Source of the DNA: a virus
Virus record (IMG/VR): IMGVR_UViG_3300031552_000004
Location: 1-64,000 of that record
DNA: 64,000 nucleotides
Strand: one strand, 5' to 3'
This document shows positions 1-52,480 of this stretch, one piece after another (the stretch's first letter is position 1; every line of letters begins with the position of its first letter). Position numbers and translations under genes: made by a program. Below the pieces are notes generated by a model. That model ran no database searches. It was not told where the DNA came from and saw only the letters and a list, made by a program, of their open reading frames with translations.

Positions 1-919
1 TAAACTCTGGCTTGCCACCCTGGTCATGCGATCCGCGTTCCATTCGGTGTACAAATATCTCCAACCAATCATCCGGCATCGGTTCTTCCTCCTCCTCGTT
101 TTCTACGACTCGGGCGAACTCGTCCCATACGCCCGGCTTGTTTTCCATCCCATACCCGTCTCCGGTGTCCTGCGCACGGAACAGGCACATGCATCGCACG
201 TCAAACGACGATCGCTGGATCTCTTTGTAGGCCGCCTGTATCCAACCCGTCGCCTTCCAGGGACCGTTCTGGTTCGCTTCCGTCACCAGCACCGGCAGGC
301 CGCGCTTGTTTGGTGGCGTCCATGCCTCGAAATCCTTGTAGCATCGGAAGTTGAAGTAACGGTCCTGGTACGGTGGTCCCATCGGTGCGTCACTCGTCAC
401 CAGCGCCGGATCTGTGCCATGGGTATAAAGGTGCCAGCACAGCGCGTCCGCCTCGACCTGTTCGAGCACGGCGCGATAGTAGAACAGCCAGTCACCTGTC
501 TCTATGTTCCATGGCCCTATCGCTGCCGGGACAACCCAGGCATCGGGATCCACCGCCTTGATCGCATCGTAGCACTTGCGGTAGCACAGCGCGTAATCGT
601 CTGCTGAAATGATGCGCTCAAAGGGACGCTCGATAGACAGATTCGGCTCATTCCCGATGATCCAAATGTTGCATCCCTGACTGCCGCGCACATAGTCGGC
701 ACATCGCCGTGCGAAAGCATCATATAGCGATGGCTGCGGGATCGTCCCATCGGGATGCCACCCGTTGTTGAGCCGACAGATCACGGTGTTCGGCGCCCAA
801 TGCCGATAGTCCGCACCTCCGCCACTTCCATGCCCAATCGCCACAGCATCCACCAGCCAGCCGCCACGCAGCAGGGCCGCACCCTTCTCGCTCAGGTCGT
901 GCAGGCCATAGATGCTCAT
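1..919 (-). CDS. Glycoside hydrolase, clan GH-A-like (3' end outside window)
   Basis: The frame is open from an ATG at 919 to the left edge, so only about 306 residues are visible. The translation reads MSIYGLHDLSEKGAALL and then a TIM-barrel-like sequence. Two signatures stand out: IIGNEPNL, the Asn-Glu-Pro acid/base motif of clan GH-A, and about 125 residues later LVTEANQ, a typical nucleophile strand. This suggests a retaining glycosidase (GH5/GH39-like), but the family is not certain. The start overlaps the stop of the upstream gene (ATGA), so it is co-translated with the tail operon. It is probably a virion-associated enzyme that degrades host surface polysaccharide. Substrate unknown. 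Confidence 0.7.
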   Translation of the reverse strand, partial: MSIYGLHDLSEKGAALLRGGWLVDAVAIGHGSGGGADYRHWAPNTVICRLNNGWHPDGTIPQPSLYDAFARRCADYVRGSQGCNIWIIGNEPNLSIERPFERIISADDYALCYRKCYDAIKAVDPDAWVVPAAIGPWNIETGDWLFYYRAVLEQVEADALCWHLYTHGTDPALVTSDAPMGPPYQDRYFNFRCYKDFEAWTPPNKRGLPVLVTEANQNGPWKATGWIQAAYKEIQRSSFDVRCMCLFRAQDTGDGYGMENKPGVWDEFARVVENEEEEEPMPDDWLEIFVHRMERGSHDQGGKPEF

Positions 920-46982: not shown

Positions 46983-47298
46983 ACAGCGCATTGAGGATCT
47001 CATTCAAGTAGCGACTTCGTGCGGCTATTGGGAGGGCCAGCGCAAGGATGGTAGCACACAGCATCTAGAAGCGCTTGAGCGCAGAGGTTGGCTAACAAAA
47101 CTTGTATGGCAGGCCATTGATCATCGCATCGCCGAAGCCGTCGCCGCCGAGCGGAAGGCATGCGCGACTCTTGAACCAGAACCGTTGCGCATTGGCGGCA
47201 CTGATGCGGAACCCGAATATGGTACATACGATGAGGTGTTTCTCTTGGGCTGGGAGGCTTATCGCTCCGCCATCCGCGCCAGAGGAGACAGGGAATGA
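46966..47298 (+). CDS. Hypothetical protein
   Basis: 110 residues, MDGVIEQRIEDLIQVATSCG, helical with an acidic middle. Overlaps both neighbours. Unknown. Confidence 0.52.
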   Translation: MDGVIEQRIEDLIQVATSCGYWEGQRKDGSTQHLEALERRGWLTKLVWQAIDHRIAEAVAAERKACATLEPEPLRIGGTDAEPEYGTYDEVFLLGWEAYRSAIRARGDRE

Positions 47299-48494
47299 GC
47301 AATCACAGGGGACTTGACGACTACTACATTCAATTCGAGCGCACCAGGGACAGGGCGGGCAGGAAGGCGGTGGCGATCCTGCTGACAGGGGGCGCATTGC
47401 TGACCGCGATCATCGCTACCGTGCTGCTGTGCGCGCGCGCCTTGGCGCAGGACGGGTACGAGCCCGGCGTCATCGCCGTGCGCAGCGACGCCGGACGCTG
47501 GGAGTTACTGCGCGTCGCACCGGGAACGGAGGAGGCGCACCTCGTCGCGTTGGCATCGGCTGGGCGCGAGACGACCAGGCTGGCTATCGCTTACCCGTTT
47601 GATTCTCCGATCTTCCTTCCGGCGATAGTCAGAGATTGGGATGGTCAGCCACCGCCGCGTTTGTTGCCGAGCGATCCTGAGTACAGTAGGCAATGGGCGA
47701 TACACACGGAATACGTCAATGTTCCGTTACAGCCAGCCGAGCCGCCGGGAGCGATCATTGCCGACCTGGACACCGGGCTGCAATCGATGATCGATCCTCC
47801 CGCACATATCGTAGGAACCTATAACGCCATGACCGGCGGGGATAACGTTTCCACGTCGTTGCCCCACGGGACGCACGTTGTTTCCATCCTCGCGGCCCCG
47901 CACAATGACATTGCCACCGCAGGCGTCTGTCCGCAATGCGGCATTCTGGCGGTCAAGGTTTGTCGTGACGAGGAAGCAGGAGCCTGTTACGAAACGGACA
48001 TCGTGGCAGGCTTGGAATGGTCCGTCCAGAACGGTGCTCAGATAGCCCTATTGGAGATGGGCACACAGTCGCCCATGCCCTATCTGGCGCAGGCCATTGG
48101 GGATGCGCTGGATGCAGGCGTCGTGGTCGTTGTACCTCGCGGTAATGCAGGCAATACCTTACCACAGTATCCGGCGTGCGTCGAGAACGTGCTGGCGATA
48201 AGTGCGCTACATCCCAACTACGAGCTTGTGAGTGGCGGGTCGTGGTCGAGCAGTTGGGGCGGGGACACGATGGCCTTCGCCGCACCGGGGGTGAATGTCC
48301 TGACGGAGAAGGGCTACTTCAACGGGACATCTGCTGCGGCCCCACACGTTGCCGGCGCGTTCGGGGTGGTGCTGAGCGAGCACCCCGGATGGACGGGCCA
48401 GGATGCCTACGACTGGCTCGTGGTGCACGCGCTCGACCTGGGCGAATCGGGATGGGATGATCGCTACGGCTGGGGAATGGTTCTACTTCCATGA
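47295..48494 (+). CDS. Secreted subtilase (S8 family peptidase)
   Basis: 399 residues. Membrane/signal helix at 25-50 (VAILLTGGALLTAIIATVLL). Catalytic triad: Asp159 (IIADLDTGL), His191 (LPHGTHVVSI), Ser346 (FNGTSAAAPHVAG), with oxyanion Asn284 (PRGNAG). All positions intact. CPQC and two more Cys may form disulfides. ATGA overlap. Exported serine proteases are unusual in phage early regions; it could act on host surface proteins. Confidence 0.85.
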   Translation: MSNHRGLDDYYIQFERTRDRAGRKAVAILLTGGALLTAIIATVLLCARALAQDGYEPGVIAVRSDAGRWELLRVAPGTEEAHLVALASAGRETTRLAIAYPFDSPIFLPAIVRDWDGQPPPRLLPSDPEYSRQWAIHTEYVNVPLQPAEPPGAIIADLDTGLQSMIDPPAHIVGTYNAMTGGDNVSTSLPHGTHVVSILAAPHNDIATAGVCPQCGILAVKVCRDEEAGACYETDIVAGLEWSVQNGAQIALLEMGTQSPMPYLAQAIGDALDAGVVVVVPRGNAGNTLPQYPACVENVLAISALHPNYELVSGGSWSSSWGGDTMAFAAPGVNVLTEKGYFNGTSAAAPHVAGAFGVVLSEHPGWTGQDAYDWLVVHALDLGESGWDDRYGWGMVLLP

Positions 48495-48646: not shown

Positions 48647-48675
48647 TTGACAACCGATGCCATCCATGATACAAT
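48647..48675 (+). promoter_or_regulatory. Rightward promoter P3 (TIGR-Tas cassette)
   Basis: TTGACA, 17 bases, TACAAT in the conserved context GATACAATGTA. Predicted start near 48682, at the first base of a structured leader. It would transcribe leader, 184-residue gene, array 1, Tas-like gene and array 2. Confidence 0.8.
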
Positions 48676-48682
48676 GTAAGTG

Positions 48683-48815
48683 CTAGTCCGCCGAGCTAGA
48701 GTCAGAGTTTTTTGTCACAAGATCGCACTTGTGGGCGAAGGCCCGCATTCGGATGACGCTCTGACTCTCCTGGCGGACTAGTCTAGAGATACCGAATGCG
48801 GGCCTTTGTTTTTCC
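48683..48815 (+). ncRNA. Structured leader RNA 1 with terminator
   Basis: Stem 1: CTAGTCCGCC (48683-48692) with GGCGGACTAG (48772-48781). Stem 2: AGAGTCAGAG (48698-48707) with CTCTGACTCT (48759-48768). Inner hairpin CACAAG/CTTGTG (48716-48733). In competition, AAGGCCCGCATTCGG (48738-48752) is exactly complementary to 48792-48806, which is followed by TTGTTTTTC, forming a long-range terminator. So the RNA can hold stems 1-2 or the terminator, or both as a pseudoknot. A ribosome site and ATG follow. Confidence 0.8.
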
Positions 48816-48833
48816 TATCGAAAGGAGAATTAC

Positions 48834-49388
48834 ATGGATCCAGTAAAGATCGTGATCGACGTGACGGATTGGGCCGAGGAAGCACTACACGCCGAGGCCG
48901 TACCAGAAACGAGGGACGACGTAGGTAGCATGGCTTTACGGAAAGGCATAGGCGCCAGGAAAGCCGCACAGCGTGCGCTTGCATTGCGAGCGGCGAATCA
49001 CTCGCCACAGGACGTGATGCCATCCGACAAGGATGTGTTGTCAGATGGAGGGCTACTCGTCGTCACATCCATAATCCGCAACAGAAAGGAGCAGATCGAG
49101 CGCAACGGGCGTATCATGGAAATGAGGGCCTACACTGCTGTCGTCCAAGACGAGGATGAACAGCCGATGTTGCCAGGAGACGATGACGTGCTCCTACCCG
49201 AACACGAGTATGTCGCGGCAGGGACGCCCGAGTCGGTAGAGAACGCCAAGCGGCTGCTGATGCAGTATGTGCCCGGCCACATCCGCAACAGGTGCGCCGA
49301 AATATGGGCCGGCGGTGGTGACGCGCGTGCTGCATGGGAGGAAGTGCGTGCGGTGTGTGATGCAATCGTAGACGAGATCGCCGGATAG
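48834..49388 (+). CDS. Hypothetical protein upstream of TIGR-like array
   Basis: 184 residues, MDPVKIVIDVTDWAEEALHA. The middle is basic (RKGIGARKAAQRALALRAAN), followed by LLVVTSIIRNRKEQIERN and a helical end (HIRNRCAEIWAGGGDARAAW). AAAGGAGAATTAC ribosome site just after the leader terminator. Its TAG stop lies in the first partial repeat of array 1. I recognise no family. Being between promoter P3 and array 1, it may be an accessory of the system. Confidence 0.62.
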   Translation: MDPVKIVIDVTDWAEEALHAEAVPETRDDVGSMALRKGIGARKAAQRALALRAANHSPQDVMPSDKDVLSDGGLLVVTSIIRNRKEQIERNGRIMEMRAYTAVVQDEDEQPMLPGDDDVLLPEHEYVAAGTPESVENAKRLLMQYVPGHIRNRCAEIWAGGGDARAAWEEVRAVCDAIVDEIAG

Positions 49389-49679
49389 CCACCAAGGCGG
49401 TGAAACCCAGCGGCGAAGTGCGAGCCAGGTATGCGGTGAAACCCAAGCGCCGCGTGCGAGCCATGGCCGGTGTTCAACCCAACGGAAAAGTGCGAGCCAT
49501 GTATGTTGTGAAACCCATGCTCCAAGTGCGAGCCAGCGTCGTCATGAAACCCATCTTCCAGGTGCGAGCCAGAGGCGCGGTGAAACCCAATAAGATCGTG
49601 CGAGCCAGAGGCGCGGTGAAACCCAATGAGATCATGCGAGCCACACGGCATGTGAAACCCAAGGAATGGATGCAAAAGG
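49382..49679 (+). repeat. TIGR-like array 1 (36-nt period, dual repeats)
   Basis: Alternating 10-nt repeats: A, RTGAAACCCA, begins at 49400, 49436, 49472, 49508, 49544, 49580, 49616, 49652; B, RTGCGAGCCA, at 49418, 49454, 49490, 49526, 49562, 49598, 49634, plus a degenerate last copy at 49670 and a partial first copy (ATAGCCA) at 49385. Spacing is exactly 18 nt throughout. Spacers (8 nt) after A: gcggcgaa, agcgccgc, acggaaaa, tgctccaa, tcttccag, ataagatc, atgagatc, aggaatgg; after B: ccaaggcg (partial B), ggtatgcg, tggccggt, tgtatgtt, gcgtcgtc, gaggcgcg, gaggcgcg, cacggcat. Reading frames through it are by-products of the 36-nt period. Confidence 0.9.
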
Positions 49680-49688
49680 AGCAATGAA

Positions 49689-50489
49689 ATGACAGACCAA
49701 CGACCGGATCCCAAGCCACGGAAACTGGCACGACTGTGGCAGTCCTACCTATGGTGGGACGAACTGAATCAACTCTGGCAGAAACACGACAAGCGCCGCC
49801 AGTCTGCCGAGGCCGGCAAGTCGAACTATGACGCCCAGTTCGAGCAGGACATGATCGAGCTCACCCACCTGGAAGAGTTCATGGAAATCGCTCGCAAGGA
49901 CATGGTGAAATACGGCACGACCGCCGGCCCGATCTGGGACTGGGTGACATCCGTCAAGGGCTGCGGTGCGGGCGGAGACGCTGCCAAGCTGCTGGCGCAG
50001 ATCGACGACATCACCAAGTTCGACACCATCTCCAAGTTGTGGCGGTTCGCAGGCTGGGCGGTGATAGACGGTGAGATCGACAAGCCGCGACGGGGCGAGA
50101 AACTGTCCTACAATCGCACGCTCAAGTCGATCTGCTGGCGCATCGCAGACCAGTTCGTGAGACAACGCACGCCCGTCTATCGCGACGAGTACGATCGCTA
50201 TCGGGAAGAGGACCGCCGCAACCATCCAAACGTCATCTGCCAGAAGTGCGGCACCCTGTTCGATCCAGAGATCAAGCGTTGCCCAGGCTGCAAGGCCAAG
50301 AACACGAGCTACAATCTGCTGTACTGCAATGCACACATGGACGCCAGGGCCAGGCGCAAGATCGCCAAGCTGTTTCTGGCACATCTGTGGCTGAAATGGA
50401 GGGAACTGGAAGGCTTGCCGACGAGCGATCCCTATGTGGAGGCGATACTGGGCCACACGCACATTGTCCCGGTGCCAGAGTTTTCATAG
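49689..50489 (+). CDS. Tas-like protein: IS110 C-terminal/Nop-like domain, zinc ribbon
   Basis: 266 residues. Residues 10-85 are helical/coiled-coil (LTHLEEFMEIARKDMVKYG). Residues 86-165 match the C-terminal domain of IS110-type transposases (Transposase_20), which is related to Nop domains: VKGCGAGGDAAKLLAQIDD, then TKFDTISKLWRFAGW, then LSYNRTLKSICWRIADQFVR. A zinc ribbon (C184, C187, C198, C201) is inserted, then the family's last helices return (IAKLFLAHLWLKWRELEG). No DEDD/RuvC or HNH nuclease is present. Flanked by the two arrays; its stop TAG begins array 2. Known Tas proteins are Nop-domain RNA-binding proteins that use TIGR guide RNAs; a nuclease-less form would bind rather than cut DNA. 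Confidence 0.85.
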   Translation: MTDQRPDPKPRKLARLWQSYLWWDELNQLWQKHDKRRQSAEAGKSNYDAQFEQDMIELTHLEEFMEIARKDMVKYGTTAGPIWDWVTSVKGCGAGGDAAKLLAQIDDITKFDTISKLWRFAGWAVIDGEIDKPRRGEKLSYNRTLKSICWRIADQFVRQRTPVYRDEYDRYREEDRRNHPNVICQKCGTLFDPEIKRCPGCKAKNTSYNLLYCNAHMDARARRKIAKLFLAHLWLKWRELEGLPTSDPYVEAILGHTHIVPVPEFS

Positions 50490-50636
50490 CCAGTGACGTT
50501 GTGAAACCCAGCGTCCAGATGCGAGCCAGCACGTTCGTGAAACCCATGTCCTACGTGCGAGCCAAGGCCCAAGTGAAACCCAGCTGCGAGGTGCGAGCCA
50601 AGGCGGATGTGAAACCCATTCATCGCGTGCGCATCC
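50483..50636 (+). repeat. TIGR-like array 2
   Basis: Same repeats and period as array 1. A repeats at 50501, 50537, 50573, 50609; B repeats at 50519, 50555, 50591, degenerate last copy at 50627, partial first copy (CATAGCCA) at 50485 containing the tas stop. Spacers after A: gcgtccag, tgtcctac, gctgcgag, ttcatcgc; after B: gtgacgtt (partial B), gcacgttc, aggcccaa, aggcggat. No spacer is shared with array 1. Confidence 0.88.
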
Positions 50637-50653: not shown

Positions 50654-50682
50654 TTGACAACCATCACGATTCGTGATACAAT
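50654..50682 (+). promoter_or_regulatory. Rightward promoter P4
   Basis: TTGACA, 17 bases, TACAAT, in GTGATACAATGTA context, immediately after array 2. Predicted start near 50689, opening leader RNA 2. Confidence 0.8.
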
Positions 50683-50685
50683 GTA

Positions 50686-50840
50686 GTTGACGTGGGAAAG
50701 TACACGTTAGGGCTGTGGCAGGCCCTCCAGTCAACAATAGCGGATGTGAAGGCGCTCTTGAGCAGCGCCGGTAGCCGTTTTCTGAGACTGGAAGATTGCC
50801 ACCGGCCACCGACGTTGCTCAGGAGCGCTTTTGTTTTTCA
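50686..50840 (+). ncRNA. Structured leader RNA 2 with terminator
   Basis: 5' domain: GTTGA/TCAAC (50686-50690/50731-50735) closing two small hairpins (ACGTG/CACGT; AGGGC/GCCCT). Middle: GGCGCT/AGCGCC hairpin (50751-50769). Long-range: 50749-50766 pairs with 50814-50831 over 18 positions with three G-U pairs, directly before TTTGTTTTTC. The middle hairpin and the long-range terminator are mutually exclusive. Same plan as leader RNA 1, though with different sequence. Ribosome site AAGGAGG and gene follow. Confidence 0.75.
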
Positions 50841-50851
50841 AGGAGGCAGTC

Positions 50852-51670: not shown

Positions 51671-51999
51671 TGGCCGAGCATCCGTGGGATAAGCCGCCTA
51701 ATCAGATTGCCAGCGAGATTGCCGATCAGTTCTTCCCGGTCACGTCGCTGTCCAATGCCGAGTTGCGGCGGCTGATCATGCGCCAGATAGAGGCCGAACG
51801 CGAGATTGCAACGCACTATATGCACCAGATGGGTCGATGGGTCGCCAGGGCCAAACTGCCAAGGGCTATCCCAAGAGTGGGCCAATCCCATACCGAGGTC
51901 CGCCGTGCATCGACATCAAGGACTAGCCAGCCACGGGCCACAACCGCCAGGGGCATAACAGCAGGAGGAAATGATGGATCCCCACACGGAAGCTGTTGA
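51670..51999 (+). CDS. Hypothetical protein
   Basis: 109 residues, MAEHPWDKPPNQIASEIADQ then LSNAELRRLIMRQIEAEREI. TGATG overlap. C-terminal basic and disordered. Overlaps the GIY-YIG gene by 26-29 bases. Unknown. Confidence 0.52.
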   Translation: MAEHPWDKPPNQIASEIADQFFPVTSLSNAELRRLIMRQIEAEREIATHYMHQMGRWVARAKLPRAIPRVGQSHTEVRRASTSRTSQPRATTARGITAGGNDGSPHGSC

Positions 52000-52480
52000 A
52001 TATATGAAACACTGGAAAGATGAAGTGTTTGATGGTTACAGCGAACAGGAATGGCTCACTTGTAATCAATTCAACCCCAATCCAGGATACATATATTTCC
52101 TTCAAGCAGGCAAATTCTACAAAATCGGACGCACAAAAGATGTCTTGCGCCGTTTTCCACAGATCAGCCTTAAAATGCCTTTTGTAACACGTCTGTGGGC
52201 AGTATGGTGGGCACCAGACATATCTTGGCTGGAAGGAACACTTCACTCTTTTTATCATCGGTTTCGAGTCAATGGTGAATGGTTCGCATTGCCCGAGCAC
52301 GAAGCCATGGAAATTAGAAAGGCAGATCCAATTTATGCTTACTGGATGTACTATGAAATCATTGCCGTAAAAACACCCGAAGAATACTATGGCGACAGTC
52401 AACGCGCTTTTGGGTATATGACAGATTTCCTCACGAAACAGTCTCATGCTCGTTCAATGAAAGATACAGCCAATGACTGA
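51974..52480 (+). CDS. GIY-YIG / T5orf172-like protein
   Basis: 168 residues. GYIYFLQAGKFYKIGRTKDV is the GIY-YIG core in the T5orf172 variant (Y-x-Y-F, K-I-G-x-T/S). LEGTLHSFYHRFRVNGEWFA gives the family's conserved H and the W-F. Probably DNA-binding or endonuclease, homing-like. Clearly richer in A+T than surrounding genes, a sign of transfer. The ATG at 51974 has better ribosome spacing than that at 51971. Confidence 0.75.
   Translation: MDPHTEAVEYMKHWKDEVFDGYSEQEWLTCNQFNPNPGYIYFLQAGKFYKIGRTKDVLRRFPQISLKMPFVTRLWAVWWAPDISWLEGTLHSFYHRFRVNGEWFALPEHEAMEIRKADPIYAYWMYYEIIAVKTPEEYYGDSQRAFGYMTDFLTKQSHARSMKDTAND

What the first reader, a model, noticed from the sequence alone, without database searches (positions are those of the whole stretch)
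49382..50636. TIGR-Tas-type RNA-guided system in a phage: two dual-spacer arrays flanking a nuclease-less Tas-like gene
Seen: two arrays with exact 36-nt period, each unit made of repeat A (RTGAAACCCA), 8-nt spacer, repeat B (RTGCGAGCCA), 8-nt spacer; 8 and 4 units; conserved repeats with spacers varying at every position. Between them is a 266-residue protein with an IS110-C-terminal/Nop-like domain and zinc ribbon. Known (from memory): TIGR-Tas systems use about 36-nt guide RNAs with two spacers and Nop-domain Tas proteins related to IS110 transposases; they occur in phages. Inference: this is such a system, of the nuclease-less type, perhaps used to silence rival phages or host genes.
Basis: partly seen in the sequence, partly recalled or inferred. 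Interest (0 to 1): 0.97.

Follow-up and report, generated by a model that had tools for sequence, protein, structure and literature searches.

The report
RNA-guided TIGR-TasA system in a phage
This phage carries a small RNA-guided DNA-binding system of the recently described TIGR-Tas kind, without a DNA-cutting part; a comparison with relatives shows that otherwise unrelated phages can carry nearly the same guides, which suggests that the still unknown targets are conserved.

Summary
Two arrays with an exact 36-nt period (8 units, 49387-49673; 4 units, 50488-50631) flank a 266-aa gene. Repeats are TGCGAGCCA (edge) and TGAAACCCA (loop); spacers have 8 free bases plus a purine. The dual-repeat motif occurs 17 times against 0.01 expected. 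The protein is a Tas protein: its profile matches TasR (PDB 9mty, E=6e-56) and TasH (6e-37), and its predicted fold (pLDDT 89) matches solved TIGR-Tas complexes first. It lacks RuvC and HNH parts, so it is a TasA. This is a new member of a known kind (Faure 2025).

Beyond that: (1) the 184-aa gene just upstream of array 1 has orthologues at the same place in 5 of 6 clade relatives and matches no known family. (2) In a sister clade, phages with little else in common share near-identical guides (13 pairs against 0.15 expected), although their tas genes are only 63-73% identical in DNA; guides look inherited and constrained. (3) Guides do not match their own phage above chance, and no target was found.

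Most likely it binds target DNA without cutting and blocks it. Target identity and silencing are inference.

The parts
48647..48675 (+). Promoter-like site TTGACA-17-TACAAT ahead of the operon
   Evidence: Consensus 11 of 12; the record holds seven such sites. Function inferred.
48677..48833 (+). Structured leader with a terminator-like inverted repeat and T run (GGCCCGCATTCGG .. CCGAATGCGGGCC TTTGTTTTT)
   Evidence: RNA fold z-score -5.1, 0 of 200 shuffles as stable. Role unknown.
48834..49388 (+). Partner gene, 184 aa, orphan family conserved directly upstream of array 1 in the clade
   Evidence: Orthologues at the same place in L011, L012, L014, L015, L016; no Pfam, PHROG, PDB or PDB-fold match
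49387..49673 (+). TIGR array 1, 8 units; starts with truncated edge repeat AGCCA overlapping the TAG stop of the partner gene, ends with truncated edge TGC
49689..50489 (+). tasA, 266 aa, solo Nop/IS110-C-terminal-type protein without nuclease domain
   Evidence: phmmer TasR 4e-25; profile 6e-56; fold search tops are TIGR-Tas
50241..50303 (+). Zinc-ribbon-like insert (CQKC..CPGC) in a variable loop of TasA
50488..50631 (+). TIGR array 2, 4 units; starts with truncated edge AGCCA overlapping the TAG stop of tasA, ends with truncated edge TGCG
50654..50682 (+). Next promoter-like site, marking the likely end of the TIGR operon

Best explanation
This is a TIGR-TasA operon of a tailed phage. One transcript from the promoter-like site at 48647 would carry the partner gene, array 1, tasA and array 2 (inferred). 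The arrays would be cut inside the edge repeats into twelve 36-nt tigRNAs (shown in the paper for other Tas proteins, inferred here). A TasA dimer would bind one tigRNA through its UG/CCA boxes; spacer A would pair with one strand of a target and spacer B with the other, opening and bending the DNA (shown for TasR, inferred here). With no nuclease domain it should hold the site without cutting and so block transcription or replication, perhaps together with the 184-aa partner (inferred). Relatives indicate that guides are inherited and constrained rather than newly acquired each time. They do not match the phage's own genome, so the targets most likely lie outside it, in conserved host genes or in a rival element (inferred). 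The confidence given is for membership plus guided, non-cutting DNA binding; for a host target in particular it would be about 0.4.
For: Array anatomy: 36-nt units, UG..CCA boxes, truncated edge repeats at all four array ends. TasA matches TasR and TasH by sequence, profile and fold, covering only TasR residues 110-321, without the RuvC part. The closest relatives carry 36-nt arrays as well. In the sister clade 13 guide pairs of 13 or more identical bases in 16 are shared between records, against 0.15 in shuffles (at most 2 in 1000), leaving out the close pair G007/G009; their tas genes are 63-73% identical in DNA and little else in those records is alike. No self-targets above chance.
Against: No RNA, binding or expression data for this locus. 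No target was found in any collection searched, so silencing is unproven. A nuclease acting in trans cannot be excluded. Host unknown. No terminator was detected after array 2. Part of the guide sharing could come from exchange of array segments between phages.
Confidence: 0.85

Rival explanations
1. The guides act on the phage's own genome, to regulate its genes, replication or packaging.
For: The locus lies in the early/replication region next to regulated-looking promoters. One of two geometries gave slightly more perfect wobble self-matches than shuffles, 19 against 7-12.
Against: Strict self-matches are at chance in the window record and in 16 others, 236 units in all; the other geometry is at chance with wobble too. 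In the sister clade, records with little else in common carry the same guides. Many records may be fragments.
Confidence: 0.07
2. The targets are other phages or plasmids competing for the same host, silenced by binding without cutting.
For: The paper proposes inter-element competition. Two window guides (1.6 and 1.7) share spacer A and differ in B by two transitions, as if made for two variants of one target.
Against: Scans of 2.9 million viral contigs with five patterns from shared or paired guides gave only a few hits in scattered, mostly unrelated genes. Cross-matches between TIGR phages are at chance. Rivals may be absent from the collection.
Confidence: 0.35
3. TasA acts as an RNA-guided aid to recombination or integration (DNA bending) rather than as a silencer.
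For: Speculation of the paper based on the near-180-degree bend and kinship with IS110; TasA resembles IS621 and ISCro4 recombinases in fold. L034, which holds a partner-gene homologue, has a tyrosine recombinase gene.
Against: Twelve different guides are more than an integration aid would seem to need. No integrase was recognised in the early-region genes checked in the window, though not every gene was checked.
Confidence: 0.06
4. The arrays are translated repeats of a protein, or the gene is an IS110 transposase remnant with unrelated tandem repeats.
For: 36 is a multiple of three and some frames are open through the arrays.
Against: Relatives keep the repeats across 1- and 2-nt slips that break any frame. 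Repeats are fixed while spacers vary. Arrays begin at stop codons of neighbouring genes. The protein matches TasR far better than IS110.
Confidence: 0.01

Closest known systems
TIGR-TasA dual-repeat systems (Faure et al. 2025, PMC12045711; e.g. Flavonifractor plautii FpTIGR)
   Same: Solo Nop protein next to dual-repeat arrays with 36-nt units, UG/CCA boxes, truncated edge repeats, arrays upstream and/or downstream of tas, phage location
   Different: 8 free spacer bases instead of 9; a conserved orphan gene upstream of array 1; zinc-ribbon insert; no terminator detected after array 2
TIGR-TasR (PDB 9mty)
   Same: Nop core matched over residues 110-321, same box motifs
   Different: No RuvC nuclease domain
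TIGR-TasH (PDB 9w04, 21kl; Salicola phage CGphi29)
   Same: Nop core; 16 free spacer bases in all, as in SpTIGR; phage-borne
   Different: No HNH nuclease domain
TasA-TasParB operons (Faure et al. 2025, fig. S14 as described in the text)
   Same: tasA operonic with one conserved extra gene, arrays around and between them, 10-nt repeats
IS110-family recombinases (IS621, ISCro4)
   Same: Related fold, dual-guide logic
   Different: No DEDD domain, no single bridge RNA, guides in arrays

Membership tests
TIGR-Tas | Array of two alternating short repeats with short paired spacers | tested here: met
   36-nt period, 17 motif matches against 0.01 expected
TIGR-Tas | UG (box D) and CCA (box C) in both repeats | tested here: met
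   TGCGAGCCA and TGAAACCCA; one loop copy reads TTCAACCCA
TIGR-Tas | Array begins and ends with truncated edge repeats | tested here: met
   AGCCA at both 5' ends, TGC/TGCG at both 3' ends
TIGR-Tas | Rho-independent terminator after the array (described as typical) | tested here: not met
   No terminator-like site found after array 2; the feature is typical, not obligatory
TIGR-Tas | Adjacent Nop-domain Tas protein | tested here: met
   Sequence, profile and fold
TIGR-TasA | No N-terminal RuvC or HNH domain | tested here: met
   Match to TasR starts at its residue 110 and uses the whole protein; no nuclease family found
TIGR-Tas | Processing into 36-nt tigRNAs bound by Tas | not testable with these tools
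   Needs small-RNA sequencing
TIGR-Tas | Guided binding to both strands of DNA | not testable with these tools
   Needs a binding assay; no natural target found
TasA-TasParB operon | ParB-like gene operonic with tasA | tested here: inconclusive
   A conserved operonic gene exists, but no ParB match; TasParB sequences not held
IS110 transposase | N-terminal DEDD domain with the C-terminal domain | tested here: not met
   Only a weak C-terminal match; 266 aa starting in the coiled-coil part

The most novel reading that the evidence does not exclude
TIGR-TasA cassettes move between otherwise unrelated phages together with guides that are kept by selection, and use those inherited guides, with a dedicated partner protein in one clade, to bind and silence conserved host genes: an RNA-guided, non-cutting host-takeover device.
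Probability: 0.35. Interest if true: 0.88.

Novelty: new member of a known kind. Interest (0 to 1): 0.6.

Why it matters
What TasA does and what TIGR guides target is left open in the founding paper. Guides shared by phages that otherwise have little in common point to guides that matter and speak for inheritance rather than CRISPR-like acquisition, so target hunting can start from a short list. The conserved orphan gene beside TasA is a candidate effector or regulator.

Tried and rejected
Self-targets, strict and with wobble, two strand geometries, gaps 0-2 (wider offsets in the window alone): at chance, except 19 against 7-12 perfect wobble hits in one geometry, judged noise. Targets in the other TIGR phages: at chance. 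E. coli rRNA as target: none. Viral contigs for guides X (two geometries), Y, V and window 1.6/1.7: few hits in scattered genes. Cloacimonadota genomes (147) for X and U: X gave 8 genomes with hits against 1 control match, mostly in unrelated genes; U touched a porD-like gene in three genomes with one constant mismatch, and a wider search showed Lys codons there in nearly every copy, so it was dropped. A 190-kb sample of the bin holding L010: at chance. Codon-like spacing of differences between orthologous guides was considered as a sign of protein-coding targets; too few differences to conclude. Other Tas-like hits in Cloacimonadota (L116-L118) had no array.

Full report
OBSERVATION. The two arrays are present as described. 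Array 1 has eight units, array 2 four, all with a 36-nt step. The motif TGNNNNCCA-9-TGNNNNCCA-9-TG is found 17 times in the window, only in the arrays; dinucleotide shuffles give 0.01. Reading the ends as in Faure et al. (PMC12045711), TGCGAGCCA is the edge repeat (truncated to AGCCA at both 5' ends and to TGC/TGCG at both 3' ends) and A-rich TGAAACCCA is the loop repeat. Both arrays start inside the TAG stop codon of the gene before them. Spacer pairs (A/B), array 1: CCAAGGCGG/GCGGCGAAG, GGTATGCGG/AGCGCCGCG, TGGCCGGTG/ACGGAAAAG, TGTATGTTG/TGCTCCAAG, GCGTCGTCA/TCTTCCAGG, GAGGCGCGG/ATAAGATCG, GAGGCGCGG/ATGAGATCA, CACGGCATG/AGGAATGGA; array 2: GTGACGTTG/GCGTCCAGA, GCACGTTCG/TGTCCTACG, AGGCCCAAG/GCTGCGAGG, AGGCGGATG/TTCATCGCG. 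The ninth base is a purine in 455 of 472 spacers of 17 records, so 8 bases are free, as in SpTIGR of the paper (16 nt in all).

PROTEIN. The 266-aa product matches PHROG 4285 'transposase' (7e-40) and, in the PDB, TasR 9mty (4e-25) and TasH 21kl (5e-12). A 24-member profile gives 6e-56 and 6e-37 and covers TasR residues 110-321 only. AlphaFold2 on the alignment gives pLDDT 89, pTM 0.85. In Foldseek the top 11 PDB matches are all TIGR-Tas chains, followed by IS621 and ISCro4 recombinases. No nuclease domain is present: TasA. The zinc ribbon sits in a length-variable loop; L013 has another cysteine-rich insert there.

RELATIVES. All seven first-found viral relatives carry 36-nt arrays. Further searches gave 23 viral loci (some the same records) and one contig of a Cloacimonadota bin; most show 36-nt periodic arrays by simple autocorrelation, some weakly, and a few distant ones do not. 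The window's clade uses TG boxes; a sister clade uses AG in both repeats, a joint change that fits a symmetric dimer as argued in the paper. Arrays in L003, G013 and G014 contain 1-2-nt slips that keep the repeats and would break any reading frame, which excludes a coding repeat.

PARTNER GENE. The ORF just upstream of array 1 (48834-49388, 184 aa) has orthologues in the same place in five of the six other members of the clade. The exception, L013, has a calcineurin-like phosphoesterase gene between two arrays instead. The clade has 100/99 support. One more homologue lies in L034, a fragment with an integrase-like gene and no Tas in the record, where the frame runs on into other sequence. There is no Pfam, PHROG, PDB-sequence or PDB-fold match; the model is moderate (pLDDT 79). 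Whether it is the TasParB of the paper cannot be decided here; no ParB signal was seen.

GUIDE CONSERVATION. In the sister clade, guides recur between phages: TGTTCAGGA/ACATGTCTG in G009 and G010 (TGCTCTGGA/ACATGTCTG in G008); CACAAAGAA/CACGTTATG in G009 with near copies in G010 and G008; TGATTAAGA/AGTAGTAGA likewise; GACTATGAG/CGTACAATG in G009 with near copies in G007 and G014. Leaving out G007, a close relative of G009, 13 pairs reach 13 of 16 identical bases; letter-shuffled guides give 0.15 on average and at most 2 in 1000 trials. The tas genes of these phages are 63-73% identical in DNA, and tblastx finds little else in common beyond the cassette (a few kb between G008 and G009, short stretches otherwise). 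Guides thus change more slowly than the tas gene. Exchange of array segments between phages could explain part of this; conserved targets are the simpler reading. The close pair G007/G009 (tas 95% identical) shares only a few of its 12 and 22 units, so turnover occurs as well. The window's own guides have no recognisable orthologues in the other records.

TARGETS. The target form 5'-[A][rc(B)]-3' was derived from the 8-nt 3' overhangs and the C-5 rule of the paper (my derivation); the opposite form was tested too. Neither form gives convincing self-matches over shuffled pairs, nor matches in other TIGR phages, E. coli rRNA or, convincingly, viral contigs and Cloacimonadota genomes. The true hosts are unknown.

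FUNCTION. Shown in the paper for other members: processing to 36 nt, dimer binding, pairing with both strands, a bend of about 180 degrees. Inferred here: co-transcription from the promoter-like site at 48647, processing, binding, and blocking without cutting. Host versus rival target is open.

VERDICT. A well-supported TIGR-TasA system, thus a new member of a known kind. The added value is the conserved partner gene and the conserved guides.

Noticed in passing
window 38033, 40252, 48647, 50654, 56359, 60384; 64447 of the record: Seven near-identical promoter-like sites TTGACA-N17-TACAAT, most with TTCGTGATACAAT, spread over the rightward early region: probably a co-regulated phage promoter set.
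   Followed up: partly
window 48677-48833 and 50684-50850: Two strongly structured leader RNAs (z -5.1 and -3.9), each after one of these promoters and ending in a long inverted repeat and TTTTGTTTTT before a ribosome-binding site; in the first the two stems interleave like a pseudoknot or switch. No Rfam match. They flank the TIGR operon.
   Followed up: partly
window 47295-48494: Subtilase-family protease (Peptidase_S8, 1.7e-31) with an N-terminal membrane-like segment, just ahead of the TIGR operon.
   Followed up: no
window 51971-52480: T5orf172/MUG113 (GIY-YIG-like) protein downstream of the TIGR operon.
   Followed up: no
L013 6549-7445: Calcineurin-like phosphoesterase gene between two TIGR arrays, in the place where relatives have the partner gene.
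   Followed up: no
L034 5001-6161: Partner-gene homologue in a fragment with an integrase-like gene; its frame runs on into sequence that looks like a hydrolase to the eye (no Pfam match): provirus junction or chimeric assembly.
   Followed up: partly
L002 near 620-860, minus strand: Second TIGR array about 4 kb from tas and on the opposite strand (same record as L014/G004).
   Followed up: no
L016 7700-7880: Three consecutive identical tigRNA units (CACATCAGG/AACGGCGGG), a recent array duplication.
   Followed up: no
L115 near 2516 (end of a 94-kb contig, G064:C79): Tas homologue followed by an array with a 35-nt period in a Cloacimonadota genome.
   Followed up: no
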